Part shown: positions 11,498 through 31,840 of the stretch, piece after piece
Layout: every line of letters starts with the position of its first letter
Numbering within the stretch: the first letter of the stretch is position 1
Position numbers and translations under genes: made by a program
The notes under the pieces: model-generated
Database searches by the model: none
What the model was told of the DNA's origin: nothing
Seen by the model: only the letters and a program-made list of their open reading frames with translations
From: Oleomonas cavernae
Lineage (GTDB): Bacteria > Pseudomonadota > Alphaproteobacteria > Zavarziniales > Zavarziniaceae
Assembly (NCBI RefSeq): GCF_003590945.1
Contig: NZ_QYUK01000011.1
Coordinates: 1,020,001-1,084,000 of the forward strand
Direction of reading: 5' to 3'
DNA: 64,000 nt

Positions 11498-11557
11498 ACA
11501 TACCGGCCATGAAGGCTGCCGATGATCGGGCGCCGTCCAAATTTCAAGGAAAACGCC

Positions 11558-15940: not shown

Positions 15941-16819
15941 ATGGCTGATATTGCACTCACCTCGACCACCCGGTCCAACCTGCTGTCGTTGCAGCAGACG
16001 ACCGATCTCGCCAACCGTACCCAGGGGCGGCTTTCGACCGGCCTGAAGGTCGCCAGCGCGCTCGACGACGCGGTGGCCTATTTCCAGTCGAAGGGGCTGA
16101 GCGATCGGGCGGCGGACTTCACCGACCGCAAGAACGACATCGACCAGGGCATCTCGTCCCTGAAGGCGGCGGTCAACGCGACCGAAGCCGGCGACAAGAT
16201 CCTGAAGCAGCTCAAGGGTATCGCGATCTCGGCCAAGACCGCCGACGATACCACCAAGGCTGACCTCTCGGCCCAGTTCACCGACCTGCTGGACCAGTTG
16301 AACAGCCTGTTCGGCGATGCCTCGTTCCAGGGCACCAATCTGGTGAACTCGACGGTGCAGGATCTGACCATCCGCTTCAGCGAGGCGACCACCTCCGAGC
16401 TGCAGATCAACGGCCGCGACCTGCGGGCGGGCGCCCTGTTCACCGCAGCCGCCAACGCCTCCGATACCGGCTCGGACATTTTTGCCGCGCTGGTCGGCGG
16501 CTCGTCCTTCACCGCCATCGCCGCCTCGGCGCTGGTCACCACCATCAACGATCTGGCGAACACCGTCGACGGTGCGGTTTCGACCGTGCGCGCGGCGGCG
16601 GCCAATCTGGGCTCGAACATCACCCTGCTCCAGACCCGCCTCGATTTCTCGAAGAACTACATCAACACCCTGACGGAAGGCTCGGACAAGCTGCGGCTGG
16701 CCGACCTGAACGAGGAGGGCGCCAACCTGGTGGCCCTGCAGACCCGCCAGCAGTTGGCACTTCAGGCGTTGCAGTTCGCCGGCCAGAACGAAAAGGCCGT
16801 CCTGCAGCTCTTCCAGTAA
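15941..16819 (+). CDS. fliC: Flagellin A
   Basis: This 292-residue flagellin forms the filament. It consists only of the conserved D0/D1 ends (LANRTQGRLSTGLKV at the N-terminus, NLVALQTRQQLALQAL at the C-terminus) with a short centre and no variable D2/D3 domain. It is collinear and of identical length with flagellin B at 30904-31782, which lies in the opposite orientation 14 kb away. Ser/Thr-rich surface segments such as GGSSFTAIA are possible glycan sites, which is inference. A small FlaF-like gene follows after 31 bases. Expression is presumably from the sigma-54 site at 15863. Confidence 0.95.
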   Translation: MADIALTSTTRSNLLSLQQTTDLANRTQGRLSTGLKVASALDDAVAYFQSKGLSDRAADFTDRKNDIDQGISSLKAAVNATEAGDKILKQLKGIAISAKTADDTTKADLSAQFTDLLDQLNSLFGDASFQGTNLVNSTVQDLTIRFSEATTSELQINGRDLRAGALFTAAANASDTGSDIFAALVGGSSFTAIAASALVTTINDLANTVDGAVSTVRAAAANLGSNITLLQTRLDFSKNYINTLTEGSDKLRLADLNEEGANLVALQTRQQLALQALQFAGQNEKAVLQLFQ

Positions 16820-16850: not shown

Positions 16851-17186
16851 ATGACCAACACCAAAGCCGCCCTGTCGGCCCGTGAAGAAGCCGCCTATCC
16901 CTTCCTCGAATGCGCGGTGCTGCTCGATCATGCGCGCAAGGGCGGCGACGCCCTGCCGCTGGCCGATGCCCTCGATGTCAACGCGGCGCGCTGGATGACC
17001 GTCGCCAACCGCGCCACCGGCCGGGCCAACAGCCTGCCGGCGACCACCACGGCGTTCTTCGACCGGGCCAGCCGCTTCATGGTCGAAGCGGCCCGCACCC
17101 TGCGTCACCAGCGCGACGAAAAGGTCATCGACATGATGATCCACATGAACCTGAACATGTCGGAAACCATCCTCAGCACGCACTGA
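16851..17186 (+). CDS. FlaF-like small protein linked to flagellin A
   Basis: This 111-residue protein follows flagellin A, with GGAG six or seven bases before its ATG. It has no signal or membrane segment. Its pattern A-x3-N-x3-W (DALDVNAARWMTV), then LP, then S-x-F (ASRFM) and a C-terminal VIDMMIHMNLNMSETIL lines up by eye with the canonical FlaF at 29947-30381. It also aligns with the 112-residue protein at 24592-24930, with which it shares PFL-x2-AV-x-LD-x-A and the NLNMSE ending. FlaF is a small flagellin-specific secretion factor that works opposite FlbT, so a chaperone role for flagellin is the likely one. The family call is inference. Confidence 0.7.
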   Translation: MTNTKAALSAREEAAYPFLECAVLLDHARKGGDALPLADALDVNAARWMTVANRATGRANSLPATTTAFFDRASRFMVEAARTLRHQRDEKVIDMMIHMNLNMSETILSTH

Positions 17187-17380: not shown

Positions 17381-18430
17381 CTATCCGAGATCGGCCCAGT
17401 TCAGGGCATGATTGGCGGCGACCGGGCGCAGCAGGATGCGCCCCGCCACCTTGTCGAGCTGGTCGGGTGAAATCCCGTCGCCGGGGCGCAGGGCCACCAG
17501 GCTGTCGAGATCCAGGCGGATGCCGGCGGCGAGATCGCGCTTTGCGCACAGGCTGCGCTTGGCCACGGCCGCGACATTGCCTTCGCTGGCTGCCGGCGCC
17601 TTCACCCCGTTGCCCAGCGCCCGCTCGATCAGGCGGATGCCGCGCACCAGGGCGCCCAGCGATTCCGGCGTGGCCGAGGTGCGGTGATCGGGCCCGGGCA
17701 GGGACTGGTCGAGCGTTACATGTTTTTCGATGATGGCGGCCCCCAGGGCGCGGGCGGCAAAGGCCGTCTCGTTGCCCAGGGTGTGATCGGAATAGCCGGT
17801 GACGACATCGAAACGCGCCGCCATGGTCGCCATCGCGCGCAAGTTGGCATCCCTTGGATCGGCCGGGTAGTTCGAGGTGCATTGCAGGACCGCGACCGGG
17901 CCGCTGCCGGCCCGGGCCAGCACGCCGAGTGCCGCCTCGACTTCCGTCAGCGAAGCCATGCCGGTCGACAGGATCACCGGCAGGCCGGTGTGGCCGACCG
18001 CGCTGAGATGCAGGTGGTTGCGCACCTCGCCCGACGGCACCTTGATCATGGGCATGCCCAGCGAGACCAGGAAGGCCAGGCTCTCCTCGTCGAAGGGGGT
18101 CGAGAGGAACAGGATGCCGCGGGACCTGGCGTAATCGGCCAGGTCGCGGAAGACCTCGAAGGGCAGTTCCAGGGCGCGCAGCAGGTCGGCCTGGGTGCCG
18201 TCGCTGCCGGTGGTTGCTTCCTGATAGGCGGCCTTGGGGGCATCGGCCCGGGTCAGGGCCTGGGTGCGCCAGGTCTGGAATTTCACCGCATCGGCGCCGG
18301 CCGCAGCGGCCGCGTCGATCAGGGCACGGGCCAGGGCCGGGTCGCCGTTATGGTTGACCCCGGCCTCGGCGATGATGAAGCAGGAGGCATCGCCGCCGAT
18401 CGGGCGGGGGCCGATGTGAAAGGCGCCCAT
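17381..18430 (-). CDS. legI: N-acetylneuraminate/legionaminate synthase family enzyme
   Basis: This 349-residue NeuB-family enzyme condenses phosphoenolpyruvate with a six-carbon amino sugar to form a nine-carbon sialic acid-like sugar. FIIAEAGVNHNGD, VKFQT, STPFDEESL, KVPSGEV, LSTGMASL, YPAD and YSDHTLG are the TIM-barrel motifs; the C-terminal SAF (antifreeze-like) domain begins near residue 285 (VAKRSLCAKRDLAAG). The neighbouring ptmE, legB, legC and legG genes indicate N,N'-diacetyllegionaminic acid as product rather than sialic acid, although the exact sugar cannot be read from sequence. Its ATG overlaps the legH stop by one base. It is last in a leftward operon of five genes. Confidence 0.92.
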   Translation of the reverse strand: MGAFHIGPRPIGGDASCFIIAEAGVNHNGDPALARALIDAAAAAGADAVKFQTWRTQALTRADAPKAAYQEATTGSDGTQADLLRALELPFEVFRDLADYARSRGILFLSTPFDEESLAFLVSLGMPMIKVPSGEVRNHLHLSAVGHTGLPVILSTGMASLTEVEAALGVLARAGSGPVAVLQCTSNYPADPRDANLRAMATMAARFDVVTGYSDHTLGNETAFAARALGAAIIEKHVTLDQSLPGPDHRTSATPESLGALVRGIRLIERALGNGVKAPAASEGNVAAVAKRSLCAKRDLAAGIRLDLDSLVALRPGDGISPDQLDKVAGRILLRPVAANHALNWADLG

Positions 18431-19071
18431 CAGGCGACGTCCCGGCCGCGCATGGGCCTGGCCGGCACCCCGATCACGGTGAAGCCGGCGGAGACATCAT
18501 TGGTCACCACCGCGCCGGCGCCGACACGGGCACCGCGGCCGATCACGATCGGCCGGTCCGGCCGGCCGTTGCTGACCACAGCGCCGATCCCTAAGAACGC
18601 ATCGTCGTGAATCGCGGCATTGCCGGCGACATGGACGCCGGGCGCCAGGCTGACGAAATCGCCCATCACCACGTCATGGGCGATGGTCACACCCGGATTG
18701 ATCAGGACATGGGCGCCGAGGCGGATGTTCACCGTCAGGCTGACCCCCGGCAGGATGATGGCACCGGCGCCGATCACCGTATCGTCGGCGATGGGGGTCG
18801 CGGGGTCGATCAGGGAGGTGGCGGCAAGCCCGGCCGCCGCCGCTGCCGCGGCCAGATGGCGGCGCAGGGCACTGTCGCCGACGGCGATCGAAACCTCGGC
18901 CCCGGGCCAGCGCGCGACGGCGCCGTCGAGGGTTACCACCGGATGGCCGCCCAGCGTGCCGGGGGCGCGATCGACGAAAGCGGTGACACGGCGCCCCAGG
19001 CGCTGTGCCAGGAAGGCAGCCTCGCGCGCCAGGCCGCCGGCGCCAAAGATCAGCAGCGGACGCTCGCTCAC
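18430..19071 (-). CDS. legH: NeuD/PglD-type sugar acetyltransferase
   Basis: This 213-residue protein has an N-terminal small Rossmann domain (LLIFGAGGLAREAAFLA) and a C-terminal left-handed beta-helix of hexapeptide repeats (TVIGAGAIILPG, LGAHVLINPGVTIAHD, IVIGRGARVGAGAVV), ending VIGVPARPM. It would use acetyl-CoA to acetylate the 4-amino group of the sugar intermediate. The start is the GTG at 19071, which overlaps the ptmE stop (GTGA); the open frame further upstream only mirrors ptmE. The position in the leg operon supports the LegH role. Confidence 0.87.
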   Translation of the reverse strand: MSERPLLIFGAGGLAREAAFLAQRLGRRVTAFVDRAPGTLGGHPVVTLDGAVARWPGAEVSIAVGDSALRRHLAAAAAAAGLAATSLIDPATPIADDTVIGAGAIILPGVSLTVNIRLGAHVLINPGVTIAHDVVMGDFVSLAPGVHVAGNAAIHDDAFLGIGAVVSNGRPDRPIVIGRGARVGAGAVVTNDVSAGFTVIGVPARPMRGRDVA

Positions 19072-20153
19072 CGGCCCAGCCCTCCCGGGACCGCGCCGAA
19101 GACGGTGCGATAGTCGGCATTGGCCTGGGCGAATTCCGCCTTCTGGCCGACGTCCAGCCAGTATTCGTGCATGGGGAAGGCCACCACCTTGCCACCGGAA
19201 TCGACCACCCGGTCGATCAGGGTGGGCATGTCGATCGGCTCGCCCTGGTCGATTTCCTGCAAGGCTTCGGGCGAGAGGACATAGACGGCGGCATTGACCA
19301 TGAAGCGCAGTTCCGGCTTTTCGGTGATGCGGGCGACCAGGCGCCCGGCCAGGTCGACGGTGCCGTACGGCACCTGCACCCGGTATTCGCGCACGCACAG
19401 GGTTACGTCGGCGCGCTGGCTGCGGTGATAGTTCAGCAACTCGTCGTAGTCGACATTGGTGAGCAGGTCGCCATTGGCGACCACGATCGGCTCGATCACG
19501 GCGTCGCGCACCAGGCCCAAGGCGCCGGCGGTGCCCAAGGGGCGGTCTTCCTCGATATAGCGGATCTCGGCGCCGAAGCGGCTGCCGTCGCCGAAATAAT
19601 CTTTGATCTTCTGGGCCTGGTAGTGGACCGAGATGAAGAAGCGGGAATAGCCGTGGCGCAGGAAGGATTCCATGATCGTCTGCAGGATCGGCCGGTCGCC
19701 CACCGTCAGCATGGGCTTGGGGGTGTCGTTGGTCAGCGGCGCCAGGCGCTTGCCGAAGCCGCCGGCCATCAGCATGACCCAGCCGTCCTTGCGCCCCTCG
19801 ACGATGGCCGTGCCGTCCAGGGTTTCGATGCCGGTGATGCGGCCCAGCGCGTCGAGCTGGGGCAACTGCCGGATGTGGTGCTGGCGGCAGCGGGAATAGA
19901 GTGCGAACAGCTCGGCCGTCGACACGCCGGCACGCTTGGCCAGGGGCCTCGCGTTCATGATCTTCTCGATCGGGGCCTCGAACGAGGTGCCGGCCAGGAT
20001 CGCCCGGCGGACGTCACCGTCGGTCACGGTGCCGACCAGGCGATTGTCTTCGTCGGCGACCAGGCAAATCTTCACCGGTGCCGCGTTGAGGGTCTCGACT
20101 GCCCGCTTCAGCGGCCAGTCGGGACGCACCAGCATCTGTCGCCAATCGGCCAT
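19068..20153 (-). CDS. ptmE: CBS-domain sugar-1-phosphate guanylyltransferase (PtmE-like)
   Basis: This 361-residue protein carries two CBS domains (about residues 5-115; LVADEDNRLVGTVTDGDVRRA, shown in part) followed by a nucleotidyltransferase (GGFGKRL and TPKPML near residues 132-148, then EDRPLGTAGAL and VANGDLLTNVDYD). PtmE of Campylobacter makes GDP-glucosamine at the start of the legionaminic acid pathway; the domain order here is the same. It sits between legC (34 bases) and legH (overlap). The CBS pair may respond to a nucleotide. Alternatives such as mannose-1-phosphate guanylyltransferase are less likely in this operon. Confidence 0.85.
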   Translation of the reverse strand: MADWRQMLVRPDWPLKRAVETLNAAPVKICLVADEDNRLVGTVTDGDVRRAILAGTSFEAPIEKIMNARPLAKRAGVSTAELFALYSRCRQHHIRQLPQLDALGRITGIETLDGTAIVEGRKDGWVMLMAGGFGKRLAPLTNDTPKPMLTVGDRPILQTIMESFLRHGYSRFFISVHYQAQKIKDYFGDGSRFGAEIRYIEEDRPLGTAGALGLVRDAVIEPIVVANGDLLTNVDYDELLNYHRSQRADVTLCVREYRVQVPYGTVDLAGRLVARITEKPELRFMVNAAVYVLSPEALQEIDQGEPIDMPTLIDRVVDSGGKVVAFPMHEYWLDVGQKAEFAQANADYRTVFGAVPGGLGR

Positions 20154-20187
20154 GCGATACCCGTTCCCTTAGCTATCACGGGGCTCA

Positions 20188-21384
20188 TTAAACGCTGGAC
20201 AAGGTTAAAAGATCGTTGGCCACCGGCAGATGGTCGGCCAGCCAGGCGCTGGACGGCAGGTTCACCAGTCGGGCGATGATATCCAGCGCGACGGACAGGG
20301 AGCCGGTGCGCGGCGCCGCGTTGAAGGCGGGCAGTTCGTGCATCGGCACCCAGGCCGGGCGGGTGTCGATTCCCATGGCGTTGGATTGGGCCAGCACGGC
20401 GTCGCGCGCAGCCTGATCCTCGACCAGGGCTGCGTTCAGCCAGAAAATGCTGCGGTCGCCCTGGGGCTCGTCGAGGAAGGTCACCCCGTCGAGGCCGGCC
20501 AGCGCGCGCCGGTACCAGGCCGCGACCCGCCGCTTGGCCGTGATCAATTCATCCAGGGCCTCGACCTGGGCCAGGCCTAAGGCGGCGTTCAGGTTGGGCA
20601 GGCGATAGTTGAAGCCGACCTCGTCATGCAGGAACTGCCAGTCGTGCTTGACCCGGGCGGTGGTGGTCAGGTGTTTCAGCCGGCGTGCCAGGGCTTCGTC
20701 GTCGGTCACGATCATGCCGCCGCCGCCGGTGGTGACGATCTTGTTGCCGTTGAACGAGAAGGTGCCGATGCGGCCCACCCCGCCGCAGGGACGCCCGCGA
20801 TGCAGGGTACCCAGGGCTTCGCTGGCATCCTCGACCATCGGCAGGTCCCAGCGCAGGCACAGCTCGGCGAGCGCGGTCAGGTCCGCCGCATGGCCGAAAA
20901 TATGCACGGGCAGCACCGCCGCGATGCGCCGGCCCTCCAGGAACAGGCCGTCCGGCCGCCGCACCGCCCTGGTGCGCAGGAAATCGTCGAGAGCGGCGGC
21001 ATCGAGGCCCAGGGTCGTCGGCTCGCTGTCGGCCAGCAGGGGGGTGGCACCGCAATAGGCGATGGCGTTGGCGCTGGCCACAAAAGTCAGGGTCGGGCAG
21101 ACGACCAGATCGCCAGGCCCCACGCCCAGGGCGTGCAGGCTGGCATGCAGGGCCGCGGTGCCGTTCACGGTGGCGACCGCGAACCGGGTCCCGGCCCGTG
21201 CCGCCATCGCCGCTTCGAAACGATCGACATAGGCGCCGACGGAGGAGACCCAGCCGGTATCGAGGCAGTCCTTCACATAGTCCCATTCGCGACCCCGGAA
21301 CACCGGGGTGTGCAGGGGCACCTGGCCCTCGAGGCACAGGTCGTCGCGGATGATCCGGCGCAGGCGATCGGAGAGGGGGTGCAT
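20188..21384 (-). CDS. legC: LegC-type PLP-dependent sugar aminotransferase
   Basis: This 398-residue enzyme of the DegT/DnrJ/EryC1 family transfers an amino group to the 4-keto sugar made by LegB. It has HTPVFRGREWDYVKDCLDTGWVSS near the N-terminus (shown in part), the cofactor-binding VEDASEALG, and the Schiff-base lysine in SFNGNKIVTTGGGG. The start at 21384 (MHPLSDRLRR) fits the family; longer extensions run into a repeat. The gap to legB upstream is 288 bases and holds two dispersed repeats, so legC to legI may need its own promoter or transcript read-through. Confidence 0.9.
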   Translation of the reverse strand: MHPLSDRLRRIIRDDLCLEGQVPLHTPVFRGREWDYVKDCLDTGWVSSVGAYVDRFEAAMAARAGTRFAVATVNGTAALHASLHALGVGPGDLVVCPTLTFVASANAIAYCGATPLLADSEPTTLGLDAAALDDFLRTRAVRRPDGLFLEGRRIAAVLPVHIFGHAADLTALAELCLRWDLPMVEDASEALGTLHRGRPCGGVGRIGTFSFNGNKIVTTGGGGMIVTDDEALARRLKHLTTTARVKHDWQFLHDEVGFNYRLPNLNAALGLAQVEALDELITAKRRVAAWYRRALAGLDGVTFLDEPQGDRSIFWLNAALVEDQAARDAVLAQSNAMGIDTRPAWVPMHELPAFNAAPRTGSLSVALDIIARLVNLPSSAWLADHLPVANDLLTLSSV

Positions 21385-21403
21385 CACTGATTCATCTCGA
21401 TAA

Positions 21404-21548
21404 GGCCCTCTCCGCCGCGCGCGGGGGAGAGGGAGGGGACCCGTCGCGTCAGCGATGGGGAGGGTGAGGTGGTGGTCGGGCAAGAACGTGCTCTATGCCG
21501 CCGACCCACCTCACCCCACCCTCTCCCCCCTGAAGGGCGGAGAGGGCT
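21404..21548. repeat. Long imperfect palindrome of ccctctcc...ggagaggg type
   Basis: A 145-base element with GC-rich arms (ggccctctccgcc and ggcggagagggct) and inner inverted segments (gggagggtgaggtgg and ccacctcaccccaccctc). Related in arms to the element at 24941-25047. It lies inside the leg operon between legB and legC and could fold into a strong hairpin in the RNA. Confidence 0.8.
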
Positions 21549-21566
21549 ACTTGGGATCGACGGGGT

Positions 21567-21647
21567 TGCGTGGTTCGACAGGCTCACCATGAGGACAATC
21601 TTTTTGCCACAAAGACCCTCCTCATCCCGAGCCTGTCGAAGGACGCA
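21567..21647 (-). repeat. Dispersed repeat of the ccttcgac...cctgtcgaa type, copy B
   Basis: An 81-base element that is the inverted counterpart of 17281-17360 (tgcgtggttcgacaggctca at the left, gagcctgtcgaaggacgca at the right, T-rich centre). Together the two copies flank legC, ptmE, legH and legI in inverted orientation. Confidence 0.8.
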
Positions 21648-21672
21648 CATCGGCGCTGCCATCCCGGTCTCC

Positions 21673-22671
21673 TCAAATATTGTACTGCCCCGCCTTGTAG
21701 CGGGCGAGGTTGGCGGGGTCGCGGAACCAGTCGACGGTCTTGGCCAGGCCGCGCGCGAGGCCGTCACGGCCGCCATGGGCCGGGCGCCAGCCCAGCAGGC
21801 GCCGGGCCTTGTCGTTTGATGCCCACAGGCGTTCGACCTCGCTGGCGGCGGGGCGCAGGCGCTGGTCGTCGGACTCGATGTCGAGGTCGCAGCCGATCAC
21901 CTGCGCGATCAGGCGGGCGGTGTCGCCGATCGAAATCTCGAAGTCGCTGCCGAAGTTGATCACTTCGCCGGCAATCTCGCTCTGGGCCAGGGCGATGAAG
22001 CCGGCCACCGTGTCGTCGACATAGTTGAAGTCGCGGGTGGGGTGGACGGCGCCCAGCTTGATCCGCCGCGTACCCGCCAGCAACTGGGTGATGACCGTGG
22101 GGATCACCGCCCGGGCCGATTGGCGCGGGCCATAGGTATTGAACGGCCGTGCCACCGTCAGCCCCAAGCCGAAGGCGGCATGGAAGGAGAGGGCGATCTG
22201 GTCGGCGCCGATCTTGGTGGCGGAATAGGGCGATTGGCCCTGTAACGGGTGGTCCTCGGTGATCGGCACGAAGCGGGCGGTGCCGTAGACTTCGCTGGTC
22301 GAGGTATGGACCACCCGGCGCACGCCCAGGTCGCGGGCGGCCTGCACCACGTTCAGGGTGCCGGTGATGTTGGTATCCACATAGGAGGCGGGCGAGTGAT
22401 AGCTGAACGGGATGGCGATCAGCGCGGCCAGGTGCAGCACCGTGTCGATGCCGCGCATCGCTTCGCGCACGCCGTGGGGGTCGCGGATGTCGCCGGCGAA
22501 GACCTCGAACTTGCCGCGCACGTCGGGCGCGGCATTGTCCAGCCAGCCCCAGGAATTGAACGAGTTGTAGAAGACGAAGGCGCGGGTGTCGAAACCCTGG
22601 CGCACCAGGGCCTCGACGAGATGCGAGCCGATGAAGCCGTCGGCACCGGTGACCAGGATCTTAGCCGCCAT
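21673..22671 (-). CDS. legB: LegB-type NAD-dependent sugar 4,6-dehydratase
   Basis: This 332-residue extended SDR enzyme removes water from a nucleotide-activated N-acetylglucosamine to give a 4-keto-6-deoxy sugar. The NAD-binding TGADGFIG, the STSEVYG strand and the catalytic YSATK are present, with RPFNTYGPRQSARAVIP further on. The start is set at the third of three nearby ATGs (22671), directly before AAKILVTG. It is the first gene of the leftward leg operon; 98 bases separate it from the divergent legF, which must contain both promoters, although none is obvious. Confidence 0.9.
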   Translation of the reverse strand: MAAKILVTGADGFIGSHLVEALVRQGFDTRAFVFYNSFNSWGWLDNAAPDVRGKFEVFAGDIRDPHGVREAMRGIDTVLHLAALIAIPFSYHSPASYVDTNITGTLNVVQAARDLGVRRVVHTSTSEVYGTARFVPITEDHPLQGQSPYSATKIGADQIALSFHAAFGLGLTVARPFNTYGPRQSARAVIPTVITQLLAGTRRIKLGAVHPTRDFNYVDDTVAGFIALAQSEIAGEVINFGSDFEISIGDTARLIAQVIGCDLDIESDDQRLRPAASEVERLWASNDKARRLLGWRPAHGGRDGLARGLAKTVDWFRDPANLARYKAGQYNI

Positions 22672-22769
22672 GACCATTTCCATGCGCGGGTTGCAGCCCG
22701 CTGTTAACCATGTCCATGCTGTCACGGGATCGTTAAGGAACTCTTCAGGCTGTTGGGCGAGTTTTGGGC

Positions 22770-23429
22770 ATGATCGACGGCCAGCGTGTACTCGCCCTCA
22801 TTCCCGCCCGCGGCGGCTCCAAGCGCTTGCCGGGCAAGAATGTAAGGCCCTTTCGCGGTCGCCCCCTGATCGCCTGGAGCATCGAGGCCGCCCTGGCGGC
22901 CGCGGCGGTCGACCGCCTCGTGGTTTCGACCGACGACGATGCGATCGTCGCTGCAGCGCTCGCGGCCGGGGCGGAAGTGCCGTTTCGCCGCCCGCCGGCG
23001 CTGGCCGGCGACGGTGCCGGTTCGGTCGATGTCGCCCTCCATGCCCTGGATGCCCTGGGCGATCCCGCCCGGATCCTCCTGCTGCTGCAACCGACCTCGC
23101 CCTTGCGCCAGGCCCAGGATATCGACGCTGCCCTGCGCCGCCTGGCCGATGGCGCGGCCCCGGCCGTCATCGGCGTGACCACGCCGTTCAAGCCGCTGGG
23201 CTATCATGTCCGCCTCGGGGCAGGGGACAAGGTTACCCCGGTCGAGGTCGAGGGGGGTGACGAGATCCGCCTGATCAACGGCGCGCTCTATGCCATTCGC
23301 GTCGACGTGCTGCGGCAGGCTCGCGATTTCGCGCCGCCGGGGACCGTCGCCTTCGAGATGCCGTTCGAACGCTCGATCGACATCGACACGGCGCTGGACT
23401 GGCAACTGGCCGAGGCCCTGGCGCCATGA
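22770..23429 (+). CDS. legF: CMP-nonulosonic acid cytidylyltransferase
   Basis: This 219-residue enzyme activates the nine-carbon sugar with CTP, giving the donor for transfer to flagellin. The NeuA-family motif IPARGGSKRLPGKN is at the N-terminus, followed by VVSTDDDAI and LLLQPTSPLR, with INGALYAI and SIDIDTALDW toward the end. The ATG at 22770 is preferred to a TTG two codons earlier. It overlaps legG by four bases (ATGA at 23426), so legF, legG and the FlaF-like gene form one coupled rightward operon. Confidence 0.9.
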   Translation: MIDGQRVLALIPARGGSKRLPGKNVRPFRGRPLIAWSIEAALAAAAVDRLVVSTDDDAIVAAALAAGAEVPFRRPPALAGDGAGSVDVALHALDALGDPARILLLLQPTSPLRQAQDIDAALRRLADGAAPAVIGVTTPFKPLGYHVRLGAGDKVTPVEVEGGDEIRLINGALYAIRVDVLRQARDFAPPGTVAFEMPFERSIDIDTALDWQLAEALAP

Positions 23430-24595
23430 GCAGGATCTGCGTCGTCACCACCACCCGCGCGGAATACGGCCTGCTGGTGCCCCTGCTGCGTGCCATTGCC
23501 GCCTCGCCCAGGCTCGACCTTCAGCTCGTGGTCAGCGGCACCCATCTCGACCCGGCGCACGGCCACACGATCGGCGAGATCAAGGCCGACGGCTGGAAGA
23601 TCGATGCCGCCGTCGAGATGCCGATCGGCGGCGCGGGCGTCCACCAGGTGCGGGCCTTGGCCAAGGGCCTGGAGGGGTTCGGCCGCGCCTTCGCCCGGCA
23701 GAAGCCCGATGCCGTGGTGCTGCTGGGCGACCGCTTCGAACTGCTGACCGTGGCGACCGCGGCCACCGTGCTGCGCCTGCCCATCGTTCACCTGGAGGGC
23801 GGCCACGTCACCCAAGGCGCGATCGACGATTCCGTCCGCCATGCCTTGACCAAGCTCAGCCACCTGCATTTCACCGCCCATGCCGACTATGCCGCGCGGA
23901 TCGCCCAGATGGGCGAGGCGCCGGCGCGGATCCATGTGGTCGGGTCGCTGGCGGTCGACAACATCATGGCCCTGCCGCGCCTGTCGCTGGCGCAGTTGGA
24001 AGCCCGGGCGGGGATCGATCTTGCGCCGGGCTTTGCCCTGCTGACCTATCACCCGGCGACCGTGGCGGGCGAGGCGGCCAGCCTCGCGGAACTCGATGTG
24101 TTGCTGGCCGCGCTCGATGCCTTCCCGAAGCTGGCCCTGCTGGCGACGGCGCCCAATGCCGACCCGGGCGGCCTGGCCGTCCGCGAGCGGCTGGAGGCCT
24201 ATGTCGCAGCCCGGCCCGGCCGCACGGTCCTGATCCCGTCGCTGGGGCGGCAGGCCTATCTGTCCGCCGTGGCGCTGGCGGCGCTGGTGATCGGCAATTC
24301 ATCCTCGGGCGTGATCGAGGCGCCGGCCCTGGATACGCCTTGCGTCAATATCGGGGCGCGGCAGGCTGGCCGTCTGCGCAGCCCCGGGGTGTTCGATTGC
24401 CCGGCCGATGTCGGCAAGATCAAGGCCGCGATCGGCAAGGCCATGCGCCACAAGCGCGGCGGCAAGGCCTCGATCTTCGGTGACGGCCACGCCGCACAGC
24501 GCATCGTTTCGATCCTCGAGGCGACGGACTTCACCAATCTTTTACTTAAAAGCTTCCATGATCAGCCTCAACAGCGGGAGGCTCGAATGCCATGA
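23426..24595 (+). CDS. legG: LegG/NeuC-type nucleotide-sugar hydrolysing 2-epimerase
   Basis: This 389-residue enzyme would cut the nucleotide from the diacetamido sugar and invert C2 to give the free substrate for LegI. Family motifs: TTTRAEYGLL at the N-terminus, LLGDRFE, HLEGGHVTQGAIDD, HVVGSLAVDN, and GNSSSGVIEAPALDTPCVNIG with RQAGR. The overlap with legF is four bases and with the FlaF-like gene four bases (ATGA at 24592). The whole pathway legB-legC-legH-legG-legI-legF is therefore present within 7.2 kb. Confidence 0.92.
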   Translation: MSRICVVTTTRAEYGLLVPLLRAIAASPRLDLQLVVSGTHLDPAHGHTIGEIKADGWKIDAAVEMPIGGAGVHQVRALAKGLEGFGRAFARQKPDAVVLLGDRFELLTVATAATVLRLPIVHLEGGHVTQGAIDDSVRHALTKLSHLHFTAHADYAARIAQMGEAPARIHVVGSLAVDNIMALPRLSLAQLEARAGIDLAPGFALLTYHPATVAGEAASLAELDVLLAALDAFPKLALLATAPNADPGGLAVRERLEAYVAARPGRTVLIPSLGRQAYLSAVALAALVIGNSSSGVIEAPALDTPCVNIGARQAGRLRSPGVFDCPADVGKIKAAIGKAMRHKRGGKASIFGDGHAAQRIVSILEATDFTNLLLKSFHDQPQQREARMP

Positions 24596-24930
24596 GCGAA
24601 GACGAGAAATTGAATCCGGTGGAAGAAACAGCTTTTCCCTTTCTGCAACATGCCGTGCAACTCGATCAGGCGCGGGCCGCCTGGGCCGTGCTCGACAAGG
24701 CCCTGGGCAAGAATGCCGAGATGTGGCTGAAGCTGACCGACGACGCGCTCGCCGCCCACGGCAAGCTGCCGCTGGAAACCATCGAGTTCATCCACAAGAC
24801 CTCGGCCTTCGTCGCCAAGGTCGCCGCGGCGGTGCGCACCGAAATGGATGACAACCTGCTCGATACGCTGATCAAGCTGAACCTGAACATGTCGGAAATG
24901 ATCCTGGCCAGGGACGCCCAGGCGGCGTAA
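24592..24930 (+). CDS. FlaF-like small protein in the legF-legG operon
   Basis: This 112-residue soluble protein is translationally coupled to legG (ATGA). It is a paralogue of the 111-residue protein behind flagellin A: shared features are ETAFPFLQHAVQLDQAR, a N-x3-W (GKNAEMW), LP, S-x-F (TSAFV) and the ending LLDTLIKLNLNMSEMIL. The same pattern runs through the canonical FlaF at 29947-30381, so I read it as a third FlaF-family member. Its coupling to sugar-activating enzymes suggests it couples flagellin handling to glycosylation, which is inference. Confidence 0.7.
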   Translation: MSEDEKLNPVEETAFPFLQHAVQLDQARAAWAVLDKALGKNAEMWLKLTDDALAAHGKLPLETIEFIHKTSAFVAKVAAAVRTEMDDNLLDTLIKLNLNMSEMILARDAQAA

Positions 24931-25058: not shown

Positions 25059-26090
25059 TCAGCTCCCGCCCAGGATCGAGAAGACGCTCTTGCTGGAAAC
25101 CGGGTCGGGCTGGATCATCGCGCCGATCACCTCGCGCTGGGCCTGCGCCGCGAAGGCGAGGCCGCGCAGGGTCATCTCATAGCGCGTGGTCGCGGCCGCC
25201 TTGGCGGCCGACATTTCGTCGAACTGGGCGTCGTTCAGGCGCAGGGCCTCGTCACCCATGGCATCGAGCCGGCTTTGCAACATGCTGGTTCCCACCTCGG
25301 CCTGTAGGCCGCCATTGCTGAGATCGTCGGTCGCCTTGCGCACCAGTTTCATGGCGGCGGTGATGTCTTCGATTGCCTTGGCCTGGCCGTCGCCGGTCAG
25401 CCCGCCGTAAGTCCAGGCCGAGCCGACCGGCAGGCCGCCCGACTTGAAGTCGGCGGTCCAGGTGTCGGTGCCGTCGGTGAAGGTCAAGGTGTCGCCATCG
25501 CGCGAGATCAGCGACAGGTCGGCGACGGCGACCCGCTTGTCGCCGACGCTCAGGGTCTGGTCGATGAAGTTGGGCTCGAACTGCCTGCCGGTGCCCTGCT
25601 CGACCAGGGCGAAGCGGCTGCCCAGCGCGCGCAGCGACAGCAGGATCTGGCTCGATCCCGCGTCGATGAACTCGGACCGCGCGCCGTTCTGCCCGGCGGC
25701 GACATTGCCCACCAGCTCGTCGAGGCCGGCACCGCGGCTGCCGACCGCGATATTCAGCCGGTTGATGGCCGTGTCGAAGCCATTGGCATTGCCGTTCTTG
25801 GCCGCGGCCAGCGCCTCGTTGAGGCGCAGCAGCACGGATTGCGAGGTCTCGCCGGCCGATTTCAGCGCGCTCACCGCATCGTCGGCGGCCGACTTCACTT
25901 CCGAGAGGCGATTGATGTCCTGTTGCAGCGTGGTCAGCGCGCTCGACTGGTTGAAGCGGTTCTGGATCGTCGCCAGTTGCTGCTGGTGGCGGGCTTCCAC
26001 GCCGGCCTTGATCAGCAGATAGGTGCGGTCGAGCGCCGCGCTGATCTGCGCCTTCTGCTGGGTGGCCGAAAGGCCGAGGAGCGAGGTCAT
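25059..26090 (-). CDS. Flagellin-shaped coiled-coil protein of unknown function
   Basis: This 343-residue protein begins MTSLLGLSATQQKAQIS at 26090, where its ATG overlaps the maf stop (ATGA). Long helices without Pro fill residues about 1-140 and 255-325. They enclose a beta-rich centre (ISRDGDTLTFTDGTDTWTAD near residue 210), the arrangement seen in flagellin and FlgL, although end motifs of flagellin are not found. It ends SSKSVFSILGGS. A 993-residue open frame that fuses it to the upstream maf gene is an artefact of the maf frameshift. It could be a minor filament protein, a glycosyltransferase substrate, or a secretion partner. I do not recognise a named family. Confidence 0.7.
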   Translation of the reverse strand: MTSLLGLSATQQKAQISAALDRTYLLIKAGVEARHQQQLATIQNRFNQSSALTTLQQDINRLSEVKSAADDAVSALKSAGETSQSVLLRLNEALAAAKNGNANGFDTAINRLNIAVGSRGAGLDELVGNVAAGQNGARSEFIDAGSSQILLSLRALGSRFALVEQGTGRQFEPNFIDQTLSVGDKRVAVADLSLISRDGDTLTFTDGTDTWTADFKSGGLPVGSAWTYGGLTGDGQAKAIEDITAAMKLVRKATDDLSNGGLQAEVGTSMLQSRLDAMGDEALRLNDAQFDEMSAAKAAATTRYEMTLRGLAFAAQAQREVIGAMIQPDPVSSKSVFSILGGS

Positions 26091-28040
26091 GCGCGCATTT
26101 CCTCCGTCAGCGGCGCCGCCTCGTCGAGGTTTTCCTCGAGCCGGCGCAGAAGTTCGACGGTGCCGTCGCGCATGAAGCAGACGATCGCCCGATACTCCTC
26201 GAAGAAGTCGGCGATCAGCCGCTGGCGCTTGGCCCGATCGGTAATTCGATGAGCAAAGAACATGCCGATCTTGGGCATCGAGCGGATGGACCCGATGGCC
26301 ACGCTGTGGGTGCCGGCATAGTTGCCCTCCAGGGTCGCCATGAAGGGTCCTAAGCGCCGCCAGAAGCTGACCAGGTCGCCATCCTCGGCGATCGTCTCGT
26401 CGACCAGGGTCAGCAATTCGGCAAAGAAGGCCTCGGCCGCGCCGAGCAGGACGCCGCGCGGCCAGCGCGCCAGGAAGGCGCCGGGGCGAAGGGGTGGTGA
26501 TGCGGGCGAGATCGGCGTTCAGCCGGCTGCGGTCGGCCAGATGCGACAGGCGCCGGATGGTCGACGACAGGCGCGGCGTGGTGGCGTGCAGGCGGGCGCC
26601 GTCGGCGGTGTTGAGCACATTGAGGCGCAGGTGGGCGGCGGCGTCGCCGATCATGCGGGCGCACAGCGACAAGATCCAATGGGTCTCGACCGCGCCGCCG
26701 AAATTGCCGGGCAGGGTCTGGTTGAACTGGATCTTGGCGTCGACCGCCTTGAACTTCTGCTCGGTGCCGTAGATCGAATCTTTCGAATGCTTGGCCTGGC
26801 CCAGCTTGGTGCCGCAGTCGGTGCCGAACAGCACCAGCTCGGTGAAGCCCAGGGCCGCGGCGAGGCGCACGGCCGTGTTGACGCAGGTCGGGGCGGCCCC
26901 GCGCAACTCGTGGCGCGGCGGCGCCAGGATCCGGGTCGAGCTGACCGAGTCGCGGAAGAAGAAGTATTTTTCCGCGAACAGGGCGGGCACCCGGGGATCG
27001 ACCGTCATCGAGGCGATCAGCTTGATGCCCGACAGGTCGAATTCCCGCGCCAGCGCCGAGAGCACCTCGAAGGTCGCCTCGCCATTCTCCAGTTCGCAGT
27101 GGAAGTCGGGGCGGATGCCGTTGCGCAGGCAGACCCGCAGGCCGGTCCCGGCCGAGAAGACGATGCCGTCGCGTTGCAGGCGCTTGAGATCGTCCAGCGA
27201 GCGGTCGATCGACGGGCCTGAGCCGACGATGATCGCGGTTTCCTTGCGGGCCAGCTTGGGCTTGGCGTCGATCACGCGATAATCGTGATGCACCATGTTG
27301 CCGACGGCATTGGTCATCATCAGGAGTTCGTCTTCGTAGAACCCCTTGGAGATGAAGATCTGGTCGACCACCAGTTGCAGGCGGTCGCGGGTCTCGGTCA
27401 GGGCCCAGGACGGGTAGTGCAGGAAGACATAGGCGCCGTCGATGAACGGCTCGCCCACCCGGCCGATCAGCGCCTTGACCGCGTCGACGATGGCCTCGGG
27501 CGTGGCCGACAGGTTGACCTCCAGGGTCAGGCCCCGCGCTTGCGCCCGCTCGAACAGGGCGGGCCAGTCGACCGTCTCCATGGCGTGGGCCATGAACTCG
27601 GCCACCGGCTCGACGATCAGGACGTGGCGGGCCTTGGTGGTCTCGATCAGGCCGGCCAGGTGGTGGCCGAGGCCGACCCCCAGGATGACCAGGAAGGTGC
27701 CTTCGTAATCCGGCTTATCAGTGAGCGTGGTGATGCCCATCTCGCGCAGGCTGCCCAGCAGGCGATCGCGCAGGCGCGCCGAAACCGCGCTGCCGATGTT
27801 GGCCCCGGCCAGGTCGTTGAGGAAGAAGCGCAGCGGGCGCGCCTCGAAGCGTTCCACCTGATCGGCGGCGATCTTGCTGCCGTCGCCGGTGTAGAGACGG
27901 CCCTGGCCCAGGTCGATGTCGATGGCGCGGCCGGCCGCGTCCCGGATCAGCTTGGTGTGCAGCGGCCCCGTGGGCAGGGCCGCGGCGGCCGCGGGAAAGC
28001 GCGCAGCGAAATCGGGGTTCGCCGGCGCCGGGGCGGTCAT
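26087..28040 (-). CDS. maf: Maf-type motility-associated glycosyltransferase (apparent frameshift)
   Basis: Maf proteins (DUF115, 6-hydroxymethylpterin diphosphokinase MptE-like fold) transfer pseudaminic or legionaminic acid to flagellin. Here AIIVGSGPSIDRSLDDLK marks the core domain (around residue 275), with TGLRVCLRNGIRPDFHCELE and VLFGTDCG further on. The frame changes near the G run 26491-26494: removing one base rejoins LARITT with RPGAFLARWPRG and on to MFFAHRI and EEMRA, giving about 650 residues. This is the only apparent insertion among the frameshifts seen. It overlaps the upstream TPR/GT41-like gene by four bases (28037-28040). Confidence 0.85.
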
Positions 28041-29944
28041 CGTGCCGCCTCGCGCAGGGCATCGAGCAGCGCCTGGGCGAAGCGCTGCGGGGCGAAGGCG
28101 GGGGCGGCGGCGGCGGCATCGGCCGTGCGCTGGCGGGCCTCGCGGTCGCCGGCCAGGCCGACGGCGATCTCGACATAGCCATCGATCGTCGGGGCGGCCT
28201 GGGCACCGAGGCCCAGCGCGGACAGGGCGGCGGCGGCGAACCGGCGGTGGCGGACGGGACCGGCCAGGGCAACGGCAGGGGTCGCCACGGCCGCGGCGGT
28301 GACGACGTCGTGGCCGTCGGTGGCGACGAAGGGTGTCAGCAGCAGGTCGAGGCCGGCGGTGAAAGCCTGATCGGCCCCGTCGACGATCTCGATCCGCTCG
28401 GCGATCCCCAAGGCCGAGGCGCGGGCGATCAGGGAGGCGACATTGTCGGGATGGCTCATCTCGCGGTCGCGCAGCAGCAGCCGGGCCTGCGGCAGGCGGG
28501 CGAGGATCGCCGCCCAGGCCTGCAACAGCTCGTCGTGCAACTGGCCGGGCAGGATATCGGCGCCCAGCAGGGGGACGGCGTTGCCGGTGACCAGGCGGGG
28601 GCTGCGTTCCAGCCGGCCGACCAGGCCGCCGGCGCAGGGGGCGACAGGCAGGGGCCCGGTGCCGGGGTCGAGGGCATTGCCGCCGATCATCAGGTCGAGC
28701 CCCGGCGCGAAGCCGTCGAAGGCGCCGTTGAGCCAGGCCGCGGCGCAGCCGGCGGGGTGCTGGGCCAGGGTGGAGAGATGGAGCGCCGCGCCGATGCCGC
28801 CGGCGTCGAGCAGAATATTCAGGTTCTCGCTGGCGATGGTGTAGGCGAGGGTGTCGCCGTCGAAGTCGGCGGCATCGATGTGCCGGGCGACGCGGCCCTG
28901 CAGCAGGCGGTTGCGGGGCGCCGCCAGGGCGCCGCTGCCGAACACGACCAGGTCGGCCGCGCCGCCGTCGCGCAGGCCCTGGCCCAGGACGGCGATGGTT
29001 TCAAGGTCGCGCGGGTGGGTCAGCGCGGCGGCCAGGACGCCGATCCGGCGCGGCGCCTCGACGCCGGCGACATGGCCGGCGATGGGGGCCGCACCGCATA
29101 GCGGTGCCTGGACCTGTGCCACCAGGGCGGCGAGCGGCGCACCGTCACGCGGTGTCGCGGGATCGAACAAAGCGGCGACCAGGCGTGTCGCCACCAGGTC
29201 GGCCTCGGCCCCCGGGGCAAGATCGGCGGCGGCCTCGGCACAGATGCCGTGGGCCGCCTGTGCCTCGCCGGCGCAGGCCAGCGCCAGCCCCAGGCGCGAC
29301 AGGTCCCAACTGTCGGCGGTGCCGTTGGCGGCGAAGCGGGCCAGGATATCGGCGGCGCGGCGCGGCTGCCCCGCGGCCAGTTCGGCATCCGCCAGGGCCC
29401 GCTGGGTCATCCCGTCGTTGGGGCTGAAAGCCGCCTGCACGGCCAGGTTCTTCCGGGCCTCGTCGATCTCGCCCCGCGCCAGCGCGGCCAGGCCGCGGGC
29501 CAGGAACGGGCGCTCGCCGATGGTGCTGAAGGCGGTGGTGAAGCGCGGCCAGCCGCGCGGGAACAGCGCCAGGGTCGCCTCGTCCAGGCCGTTGGCCTTG
29601 GACAGCTTGGCATAATAGGTCGCCTCGGCCAGTTCGCCGGCCAGGGCGAAGAGAATGGCCAGCGCCTCGGCGATCACGGCGCTCGCCGGGGCCAGGTCGT
29701 GGGCTTCGCGCAGGGCCTCCAGGGCCAGGGCGAAATCGCTCGACAGGAAGCCCAGGTGGCCCATCGCGGTCAGCGCCGCGGCATCGGCGGGCGCCTGTTC
29801 CAGCCGGCCCTCGACCCGGGCAATCGCCTGGTCGCGTTCGCCCGCGTCGAGCAGGGCAACGATCTCGCCCAGGAACGGGGCGATCATCTGGTCGGCGCTG
29901 GTGGCGGGCGCCGCGGGGGCGGCGGCGAGGCTGGCAATGGTCAA
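28037..29944 (-). CDS. TPR protein with GT41/SPINDLY-like glycosyltransferase domain
   Basis: The first half is TPR repeats (for example AIARVEGRLEQAPADAAALTAMGHLG, shown in part, and IDEARKNLAVQAAFSPND). The second half resembles O-GlcNAc transferase-type enzymes: IGVLAAALTHPRDLE, HLSTLAQHPAGCAAAW, LLQAWAAILARLPQARLLLRD and the terminal LLLTPFVATDGHD followed by AVATPAVAL. The match is divergent, so catalytic ability is uncertain. The start is taken as TTG at 29944, right after the flaF stop; ATG at 29887 is the alternative. No strong ribosome site is seen for either, so coupling to flaF is likely. About 635 residues. It probably glycosylates flagellin or an associated protein. Confidence 0.72.
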   Translation of the reverse strand: MTIASLAAAPAAPATSADQMIAPFLGEIVALLDAGERDQAIARVEGRLEQAPADAAALTAMGHLGFLSSDFALALEALREAHDLAPASAVIAEALAILFALAGELAEATYYAKLSKANGLDEATLALFPRGWPRFTTAFSTIGERPFLARGLAALARGEIDEARKNLAVQAAFSPNDGMTQRALADAELAAGQPRRAADILARFAANGTADSWDLSRLGLALACAGEAQAAHGICAEAAADLAPGAEADLVATRLVAALFDPATPRDGAPLAALVAQVQAPLCGAAPIAGHVAGVEAPRRIGVLAAALTHPRDLETIAVLGQGLRDGGAADLVVFGSGALAAPRNRLLQGRVARHIDAADFDGDTLAYTIASENLNILLDAGGIGAALHLSTLAQHPAGCAAAWLNGAFDGFAPGLDLMIGGNALDPGTGPLPVAPCAGGLVGRLERSPRLVTGNAVPLLGADILPGQLHDELLQAWAAILARLPQARLLLRDREMSHPDNVASLIARASALGIAERIEIVDGADQAFTAGLDLLLTPFVATDGHDVVTAAAVATPAVALAGPVRHRRFAAAALSALGLGAQAAPTIDGYVEIAVGLAGDREARQRTADAAAAAPAFAPQRFAQALLDALREAAR

Positions 29945-29946
29945 GG

Positions 29947-30381
29947 TTACACCGAGTGGCTGAAGCCGCCGGCGGGCTTGGCCGGCACGGAAACCGTTGC
30001 TGTCACCGCCGCGGTCGCGGGCGTCGCCAGCAGGCCGGCGGCGATCTCGCGGTTGATGCGGATCAGGATGTCCAGCTTGCCGGGGCTGGGATCGGCGAGC
30101 ACGCCGACCGTGTGGCGGTCGATGAAGTTCGACAGCGACAGGACATTGGCCTTCAGCTCGTTGGGCATGGGCGAGTCGGGCGACATCACGCCGGCCTGGA
30201 AGATCGTCCACAGGCGCCAGTTGCGCCGGACGGCATCCAGGAAGGCGGCGTTGTCGGCCGGGTTGCGCTGGGCCTCCGCCAGGCGGCGGGCGGACTCCGT
30301 CAGGGCCCAGCCCTCGGTGCGCCGCGGATCGCCCTCGGGCGGGATCTGGCTATAGGTGGGCCGGCGCTGGGTCGGGTACAT
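29947..30381 (-). CDS. flaF: Flagellar biosynthesis regulator FlaF
   Basis: FlaF (144 residues) is an alphaproteobacterial factor needed for flagellin secretion and works opposite FlbT. The ATG at 30381 follows AAGGAGA and overlaps the end of flbT by 32 bases. Typical segments are TEGWALTESARRLAEAQ, LDAVRRNWRLWTIFQ, MPNELKANVLSLSNFIDRHT, and a C-terminal KLDILIRINREIAAGLL that is matched by the two small FlaF-like proteins at 16851 and 24592. A Thr/Val/Ala/Pro-rich tail follows. Confidence 0.9.
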   Translation of the reverse strand: MYPTQRRPTYSQIPPEGDPRRTEGWALTESARRLAEAQRNPADNAAFLDAVRRNWRLWTIFQAGVMSPDSPMPNELKANVLSLSNFIDRHTVGVLADPSPGKLDILIRINREIAAGLLATPATAAVTATVSVPAKPAGGFSHSV

Positions 30382-30760
30382 GGGCGAAAATCTCCTTCTC
30401 GTGCGCCAATAGCTTCTTGGCCGTCTTCAGCGCGGGATAGATCTGCCGGGTCGCCAGTTGTTCGGTGATCTCGGCGATGGTGGCGGCGGCACTGGGGGCC
30501 GCGGCGGCGTAGTCCGCAAGAAATCCCTTGGCGGCAGCCTGATAGTCGGCGGCGCGGTCGGGGAACAGGTACAGGCACTGAAGCACGTAATAGATACGGG
30601 TGGCCGGCGTCTGGGCGTCTTCCGCGGCCAGGATGTCCTTGCCGCGCAGGATCTGGGCGCGATTGAGCACCGACAGAGTCGCAGGCCCACCGGCATTGGC
30701 GATGACGACGCCGTTGACGATGATCTTCTCTTCCGGTGCTAGCGTAATTTTCAGGGGCAC
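30350..30760 (-). CDS. flbT: Flagellin mRNA regulator FlbT
   Basis: FlbT (136 residues) binds the 5' end of flagellin mRNA in Caulobacter and holds back its translation until the hook is built. It begins at a GTG (30760) preceded by GAGGAGG, giving the family start PLKITLAPEEKIIVNGVVI; the frame is open further upstream but that part is not plausible. The centre ILRGKDIL and the segment RIYYVLQCLYLFPD are characteristic. Order on this strand is flagellin B, flbT, flaF, TPR/GT41, maf, flagellin-shaped gene, all tightly packed after flbT. Confidence 0.92.
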   Translation of the reverse strand: MPLKITLAPEEKIIVNGVVIANAGGPATLSVLNRAQILRGKDILAAEDAQTPATRIYYVLQCLYLFPDRAADYQAAAKGFLADYAAAAPSAAATIAEITEQLATRQIYPALKTAKKLLAHEKEIFAHVPDPAPAHL

Positions 30761-30852
30761 GCCGAAACCTCCTCGTCTCACTCGACGGAGGTCACTCTGG
30801 GCCCGGTTTCGTTAATTCGAGGTAAAGCGCGCGGGCGCTTGCCTCAAAGCAG

Positions 30853-30903: not shown

Positions 30904-31782
30904 TCAGCGGAACAGCGACAGGACGTTCTGCTCGCTCTGGCCGGCGAAGTTCAGGGCCTGCAGGGCAAGCTGCTGGCGGGTCTGCAAGGCAACCAGGTTG
31001 GCGCCTTCTTCGTTCAGGTCGGCCAGGCGCAGCTTGTCGGCGCCTTCCGTCAGCGAGTTCACATAGTTGCTGGTGAAGTCGGCGCGGGTCTGCAGCAGGG
31101 TGATGTTCGAGCCGAGGTTCGAGGCCGTGGCGCGGACCGTGGAGACCGCCGAGTCGACCGCCGAGGTGATGTCGTTGATCGTGGTGATCAACGCCGAGGT
31201 CGCGATGGCGGTGAACGAGCTGCCGCCGATCAGGGCCGCGGCGATGTCCGAACCGACGTCCGAGGCATTGGCCGCAGCGGTGAACAGGGCACCGGCGCGC
31301 AGGTCACGGCTGCTGACGTCGAGCTGCGCCGTGGTCACTTCCGAGAAGCGGACGGTCAGGGACTGGGTCGTCGAGTTGACGAGGTTGGTGCCCTGGTAGC
31401 TGGCGTCGCCGAGCAGGCTGTTCACCTGGTCGAGCAGGTCGGCGAACTGGGCGCCCAGGTCGGCCTTGCCGGCATCGTCGGCGGTCTTGGCCGAAATCGC
31501 GACGCCCTTGATCTGCTTCAACAGCTTGTCGACCGATTCGGTGGCGTTCACCGCGGCCTTCAGGGTCGAGATGCCCTGGTTGATCTCGTCCTTGCGGGCG
31601 GAGAAGTCGTTGGCGCGATCCGACAGGGTCTTGGAGGCGAAATAGGCCGCCGCGTCGTCGATGGCGCTGGACACCTTCAGGCCGGTGGCCAGACGGGTCT
31701 GGGTCCGGTTGGCGAGGTCGGTGGTCTGGTTCAGCGAGAGAAGATTGGACCGCGAGGTGGCGGTCAGGGTGATATCGGCCAT
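30904..31782 (-). CDS. Flagellin B
   Basis: This 292-residue flagellin has the same length and plan as flagellin A, with substitutions spread along it (for example LANRTQTRLATGLKVSSAID against LANRTQGRLSTGLKVASALD). It has D0/D1 ends only. The ATG at 31782 is preceded by an AGAAGGA ribosome site. A sigma-54 promoter lies at 31841-31855. The two flagellin genes are in inverted orientation and bracket the glycosylation genes. The filament is probably mixed from both subunits. Confidence 0.95.
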   Translation of the reverse strand: MADITLTATSRSNLLSLNQTTDLANRTQTRLATGLKVSSAIDDAAAYFASKTLSDRANDFSARKDEINQGISTLKAAVNATESVDKLLKQIKGVAISAKTADDAGKADLGAQFADLLDQVNSLLGDASYQGTNLVNSTTQSLTVRFSEVTTAQLDVSSRDLRAGALFTAAANASDVGSDIAAALIGGSSFTAIATSALITTINDITSAVDSAVSTVRATASNLGSNITLLQTRADFTSNYVNSLTEGADKLRLADLNEEGANLVALQTRQQLALQALNFAGQSEQNVLSLFR

Positions 31783-31840
31783 TTGCTTGATCCTTCTGGG
31801 TCTTGGTTTCGAAGCTCTTCTGAGCCTCGGCAGGATCAGT

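What the first reader, a model, noticed from the sequence alone, without database searches (positions are those of the whole stretch)
25059..26090. Flagellin-shaped protein coupled to the Maf glycosyltransferase
A 343-residue protein with two long helical ends and a beta-rich centre, as in flagellin or FlgL, is read by ATGA overlap right after maf, yet has none of the flagellin end motifs. It may be a minor filament protein, a glycosylation substrate or a scaffold for the modifying enzymes.
Basis: partly seen in the sequence, partly recalled or inferred. Interest (0 to 1): 0.6.

Follow-up and report, generated by a model that had tools for sequence, protein, structure and literature searches.

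The report
Flagellin-like protein tied to flagellin glycosylation
Next to the enzyme that puts sugars on the flagellum of this bacterium (Zavarzinia) sits a gene for a strongly changed relative of flagellin itself; it forms its own branch of the flagellin family, keeps company with sugar-adding genes wherever it was found, and is probably a rare, sugar-coated extra part of the flagellum.

Summary
The ORF is real: 343 aa on the minus strand, window 26090..25059, overlapping maf by ATGA. The overlap is conserved in all six Zavarzinia-group genomes. "Flagellin-shaped" is right. The AlphaFold model's best PDB matches are nearly all flagellins (Z 12-15, residues 11-330), and a profile-profile comparison with flagellins gives E 2.5e-9 along almost the whole length (reversed control 0.31). 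"None of the flagellin end motifs" is too strong: the ends are degenerate but recognisable. It is neither an ordinary flagellin nor FlgL: both exist separately in the same genomes, and X forms a third clade (100/99). Its ends are not its best-conserved part, unlike flagellin; FlgL is similarly flat. X was found only in Maf-bearing genomes (6 of 26 Maf-positive, 0 of 359 Maf-negative in the class sample). In a second, distant family it is not beside maf but heads a pseudaminic-acid (PseG) operon. The steady association is therefore with nonulosonic-acid flagellin glycosylation. Most likely X is a low-copy, exported, flagellin-fold filament or junction protein modified by the neighbouring enzymes (inferred). 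A cytoplasmic Maf accessory or FljJ-like regulator is not excluded. No homologues outside two alphaproteobacterial families were found.

The parts
25059..26090 (-). X: flagellin-superfamily protein, 343 aa
   Evidence: ORF and conserved orthologues; fold search; profile-profile homology to flagellins; own clade
25947..26066 (-). X residues 9-48: N-terminal helix in the place of flagellin ND0
   Evidence: AlphaFold model, aligned to flagellin chains from residue 11 on
25740..25940 (-). X residues 51-117: helices in the place of flagellin ND1a and ND1b; ND1b is the best-conserved helix (0.65)
25434..25679 (-). X residues 138-219: small beta domain; conserved FTDGT...GGL stretch runs on to about residue 236
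   Evidence: no confident structural match on its own
25116..25394 (-). X residues 233-325: long C-terminal helix in the place of flagellin CD1/CD0; carries a degenerate flagellin C-terminal motif (LAFAAQAQREVIG)
25062..25115 (-). X residues 326-343: short tail beyond CD0 (V..SVF.I.G), conserved among orthologues, absent from flagellins
   Evidence: alignments; flagellin ends
26087..28040 (-). maf: Maf-family flagellin glycosyltransferase; frameshifted in this assembly near 26470-26500, C-terminal part readable in 26087-26416
   Evidence: PF20157 E 2.6e-35 and PF01973 E 1.6e-30; intact in relatives; site sequence
28037..29960 (-). TPR protein, FlmG-like by position; GT41 similarity only weak (E 0.025); start uncertain, the longest ORF runs to 30211 and overlaps flaF
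29947..30381 (-). flaF, flagellin secretion chaperone
   Evidence: PF07309 E 5.6e-28
30350..30781 (-). flbT
   Evidence: PF07378 E 2.3e-35
30904..31785 (-). fliC1, ordinary flagellin of the same gene row
   Evidence: PF00669 E 2.1e-15, PF00700 E 1.7e-8
14197..15198 (+). FlgL (hook-associated protein 3), present separately from X
   Evidence: NCBIfam TIGR02550 E 2.4e-18, below its curated cut-off; position beside flgK
15941..16819 (+). fliC2, second ordinary flagellin
24592..24930 (+). convergent 112-aa ORF of unknown family that meets X tail to tail in the relatives
17381..24595 (.). legionaminic-acid-type synthesis genes (NeuB, NeuD-like, PtmE-like, LegC, LegB, CMP-transferase, NeuC)
   Evidence: LegC and LegB above curated cut-offs; NeuC E 1.7e-117

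Best explanation
X is a third, divergent branch of the flagellin superfamily, besides flagellin and FlgL, that serves flagellin glycosylation with nonulosonic acids. Shown here: flagellin homology and (predicted) fold, reading-frame overlap with maf, restriction to Maf-bearing genomes, and linkage to nonulosonic-acid genes in two families. Inferred: X is made together with Maf, receives the same sugar (legionaminic- or pseudaminic-acid type) on its beta-rich centre, is exported through the flagellar export gate as flagellin is, and takes a low-copy place in the filament or at one of its ends, in the manner of FlgL or a minor flagellin.
For: Fold: the top 50 PDB matches are nearly all flagellins, Z 12-15, up to 240-260 residues aligned. 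Homology: profile-profile E 2.5e-9 over 246 columns against E 0.31 for the reversed control; the positive control flagellin-FlgL gave 2.5e-8. Both D0-equivalent helices are kept, and the CD0 stretch (0.54) is better conserved than CD1 (0.47), although D0 is dispensable for recognition by a Maf enzyme (PMC11339370), which suggests that export or assembly still constrains X. Its flat conservation is like that of FlgL (N60/C60/middle 0.48/0.51/0.52) and not like bulk flagellin (0.81/0.86/0.66). Context: row fliC-flbT-flaF-TPR-maf-X; PseG operon in the second family. X occurs only with Maf: 6/26 against 0/359.
Against: No direct evidence of export, of incorporation or of glycosylation. The conserved tail beyond CD0 would lie in the narrow filament channel, awkward for a subunit inside the filament. 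The distant family keeps X with sugar-synthesis genes and not with filament genes. The centre of X is less rich in Ser/Thr (17%) than that of fliC1 (28%). The Maf association counts only two families, so its low Fisher p is inflated by shared descent.
Confidence: 0.42

Rival explanations
1. X is a cytoplasmic accessory of the glycosylation enzymes: a flagellin mimic that binds Maf and/or the TPR protein (or FlaF) and sets their activity, stability or timing, without entering the filament.
For: Strict ATGA overlap with maf; in the second family it heads the PseG operon, away from flagellin and maf; only in Maf-bearing genomes; best conservation in ND1b and residues 201-240, not at the polymerising ends; extra tail beyond CD0.
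Against: Most Maf-bearing genomes do without X: 20 of 26 Maf-positive genomes in the sample lack it, and none of 20 other maf neighbourhoods encodes an X-like protein. Both D0 helices are kept, which a Maf adaptor should not need.
Confidence: 0.28
2. X is a regulatory flagellin paralogue working like Caulobacter FljJ: an early, glycosylated, hook-proximal flagellin whose binding by FlbT links flagellin translation to assembly.
For: X shares a gene row with flbT and flaF. In Caulobacter the regulatory flagellin FljJ is glycosylated by FlmG, exported, hook-proximal, unable to build a filament alone, and bound by FlbT (PMC7591256).
Against: FljJ is 49% identical to the other flagellins, whereas X is a separate deep clade. 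In the second family X is not near flbT. FlbT binding is untested.
Confidence: 0.15
3. X is the filament cap or another terminal factor that stands in for FliD, which these genomes lack.
For: No FliD_N or FliD_C match in the X-bearing genomes; flagellin-like fold with a tail; flat conservation as in the low-copy FlgL.
Against: The Caulobacter control also shows no FliD match although it lacks Maf, and X was found in only two families, so X cannot be the general substitute. X has no large D2/D3 plate as in FliD.
Confidence: 0.07
4. X is a decayed flagellin pseudogene product or annotation artefact.
For: Long branch (1.3) and low identity to flagellin; other genes of this window carry frameshifts.
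Against: Intact ORF without stops in nine genomes, conserved start overlap, invariant residues across two families.
Confidence: 0.02

Closest known systems
Bacterial flagellin (FliC; PF00669/PF00700)
   Same: Whole-length fold (ND0, ND1a, ND1b, beta region, CD1, CD0), remote sequence homology, same gene row as a true flagellin
   Different: No Flagellin_N/C match at cut-off; spoke motif (RLSTGLKV.SA.DDA) and C-terminal ADLNEEGANLVALQTRQQL motif lost; ends not better conserved than the centre; extra tail after CD0; separate clade
FlgL (HAP3)
   Same: Same superfamily, similar length, similarly flat conservation
   Different: No direct profile match (E 0.12), separate clade, and a FlgL gene exists elsewhere in the same genomes, beside flgK
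Caulobacter crescentus FljJ, the regulatory flagellin
   Same: An extra flagellin-family protein in a genome with FlbT, FlaF and cytoplasmic flagellin O-glycosylation
   Different: FljJ is a near-normal flagellin (49% identity to the others, as read in PMC7591256); Caulobacter has no Maf; X is far more divergent and lies in the maf or Pse gene row
Maf systems with known acceptors (Aeromonas caviae Maf1, Clostridium botulinum Maf)
   Same: Maf acts on flagellin-fold acceptors in the cytoplasm before export
   Different: No divergent flagellin-fold partner encoded with Maf was found in the papers read

Membership tests
Flagellin superfamily (flagellin/FlgL fold and homology) | Flagellin-type fold with paired N- and C-terminal helices | tested here: met
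   AlphaFold model pLDDT 77.6, pTM 0.62; top PDB matches flagellins, Z 12-15, residues 11-330
Flagellin superfamily (flagellin/FlgL fold and homology) | Detectable sequence homology with flagellins above controls | tested here: met
   hhalign E 2.5e-9, reversed control 0.31; weak genome hits that were read are flagellins
Flagellin (FliC) proper | Flagellin_N and Flagellin_C matches at gathering score | tested here: not met
   One weak Flagellin_N match (E 0.3) in one of seven members, no Flagellin_C match listed
Flagellin (FliC) proper | Ends strongly conserved, centre variable | tested here: not met
   X 0.46-0.54 at the ends, up to 0.71 in the centre; flagellins 0.84/0.89 ends, 0.56 centre
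Flagellin (FliC) proper | Groups with flagellins in a tree | tested here: not met
   X is its own group, support 100/99; flagellins a separate group, 87/74; long branches, so exact placement is uncertain
Flagellin (FliC) proper | Polymerises into the filament | not testable with these tools
   Needs filament proteomics or electron microscopy
FlgL (HAP3) | FlgL profile match or direct homology | tested here: not met
   No TIGR02550 match; hhalign against seven FlgL E 0.12
FlgL (HAP3) | Would be the genome's only FlgL | tested here: not met
   A separate FlgL at window 14197-15198 and in relatives
FliD cap | FliD_N/FliD_C profile match | tested here: not met
   No match in any X-bearing genome searched
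FljJ-like regulatory flagellin | Bound by FlbT and regulates flagellin translation | not testable with these tools
   Only sharing of a gene row with flbT is seen in Zavarzinia

The most novel reading that the evidence does not exclude
A flagellin paralogue that has left the filament and become a dedicated partner of nonulosonic-acid flagellin glycosylation: a flagellin mimic that positions, licenses or times Maf and the TPR protein, able to travel with either the legionaminic or the pseudaminic acid pathway.
Probability: 0.25. Interest if true: 0.65.

Novelty: new variant of a known kind. Interest (0 to 1): 0.42.

Why it matters
How Maf enzymes choose their acceptor, and how glycosylation is timed against export, are open questions. 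A flagellin-fold protein that is fixed beside Maf or the Pse genes, but is neither flagellin nor FlgL, gives a concrete gene to delete and pull down. If it enters the filament, it is an unrecognised axial component in bacteria without a recognisable FliD; if it stays in the cytoplasm, it is a new kind of glycosylation accessory.

Tried and rejected
Single-sequence Pfam, NCBIfam and PHROG scans gave nothing above chance for X. Sequence searches of solved structures gave only chance helical-bundle hits. The beta domain predicted alone is poor (pLDDT 61) and has no confident structural relative; the best, PH-like and fatty-acid-binding barrels, have E above 0.1 and Z at most 5, so I make nothing of it. 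A viral relative found no support. No match on plasmids. An X-like protein beside maf in 20 other alphaproteobacterial maf neighbourhoods was sought and not found. The idea that X is the genome's FlgL was dropped, because FlgL exists separately. The first alignment used wrong strands for three loci and was discarded. No paper found describes such a protein; only open-licence papers were searched.

Full report
Observation. The minus strand of 25059-26090 encodes a 343-residue protein, X. Its ATG overlaps the last stop of the maf reading frame as ATGA, and the same overlap is found in all six Zavarzinia-group genomes, G000-G005. The genus is inferred from locus L009, a contig of Zavarzinia sp. 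isolate STE_95 that equals the G003 contig in length and match. Orthologues share 49-60% identity within the genus and 44% in G006 of the same family.

Gene context. In the window and relatives the order is fliC1 - flbT - flaF - TPR protein - maf - X, meeting a small convergent ORF tail to tail; in the window, G001 and G003 this is followed by the NeuC-like gene. The window carries a legionaminic-acid-type gene set: LegB and LegC exceed their curated cut-offs, with NeuB-, NeuC- and NeuD-like genes and a CMP-sugar transferase. In G006 a contig break falls between maf and X, with contig ends that fit the same order.

A second context. Profile searches found X in one other family: G098 (E 5.6e-43) and its congener G389. 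In both, X is the first gene of a row X - PseG - PseF-like - oxidoreductase - aminotransferase, divergent from PseB - PseC; PseB and PseG of G098 exceed their curated cut-offs. In G098 the fliC-flbT-flaF-TPR-maf row lies about 21 kb away. So the constant is the nonulosonic-acid glycosylation of flagellin, not adjacency to maf.

What X is. The AlphaFold model has three N-terminal helices (9-48, 51-98, 102-117), a beta region and one 93-residue C-terminal helix. This is the flagellin layout ND0, ND1a, ND1b, beta region, CD1-CD0. Foldseek's best hits are flagellins (best E 1e-5), and a realignment gives Z 12-15 over most of X. Long helical models can reach Z near 13 by chance, as the tool warns, so the sequence evidence matters. 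The X profile aligned with 15 alphaproteobacterial flagellins gives E 2.5e-9 over 246 columns; the reversed profile gives 0.31; X against FlgL gives 0.12; the flagellin-FlgL positive control gives 2.5e-8. Independently, the weak hits of the X profile in hundreds of genomes that I read are C-termini of flagellins.

What X is not. FlgL and two ordinary flagellins are encoded elsewhere in the window. In a tree X, flagellins and FlgL are three separate groups (X 100/99, FlgL 100/100, flagellins 87/74), with long branches that leave their mutual order open. Flagellins of these genomes keep their ends (0.84 and 0.89) and vary in the centre (0.56); X does not (0.46 ND0, 0.54 CD0, up to 0.71 at 221-240). 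FlgL is flat as well, so flatness points away from a bulk filament subunit but does not choose between a low-copy axial part and a cytoplasmic protein. X also has a conserved tail after CD0 that flagellins lack.

Distribution. In a sample of 385 genomes of the class, 26 have Maf and 6 have true X; all 6 are among the 26 (Fisher p 5e-8). The p-value overstates the case, because only two families are involved. Twenty other maf neighbourhoods show fliC-TPR-maf rows in several families but no X. X is thus a lineage-restricted addition and not a general need of Maf.

Function. Established knowledge: Maf enzymes transfer nonulosonic acids to Ser/Thr in the exposed D1 loop or D2/D3 of flagellin in the cytoplasm, and the C. 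botulinum enzyme does not need D0 (PMC11339370). In Caulobacter, FlmG binds flagellins through its TPR part, FlaF is the secretion chaperone, and FlbT binds the regulatory flagellin FljJ (PMC7591256). From this I infer that X, which keeps both D0-type ends, is most likely still exported and assembled in few copies, and glycosylated by the enzymes it is encoded with (0.42). A cytoplasmic flagellin mimic serving Maf (0.28) and a FljJ-like regulator (0.15) remain open. No step of export, modification or binding is shown.

Verdict. It is a new variant of a known kind, of moderate interest.

Noticed in passing
window 26470-26500 (maf, minus strand): maf is frameshifted in a C-rich stretch; all relatives examined have maf in one frame. 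As a result the N-terminal maf frame and X read as one open frame of 993 codons.
   Followed up: partly
window 11522-12795 and 12822-14191: flgE and flgK are also split between frames in this window, while flgK of G001 is in one frame; three frameshifts within about 16 kb suggest indel errors in the assembly.
   Followed up: partly
window 24592-24930 (+) and 16851-17186 (+): Two paralogous small proteins (112 and 111 aa, 38% identity, E 2e-21) of no known family: one tail to tail with X, one directly after fliC2. Relatives keep these positions.
   Followed up: partly
L121, L123, L125, L126, L128 (other alphaproteobacterial families): A TPR protein gene (FlmG-like by position) stands directly before maf in several families, so both presumed flagellin glycosyltransferases often share one row.
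   Followed up: partly
genomes G000-G006, G098, G389: No FliD_N or FliD_C match in the X-bearing genomes searched, so the filament cap of these bacteria is unidentified; the Caulobacter control is also empty.
   Followed up: partly
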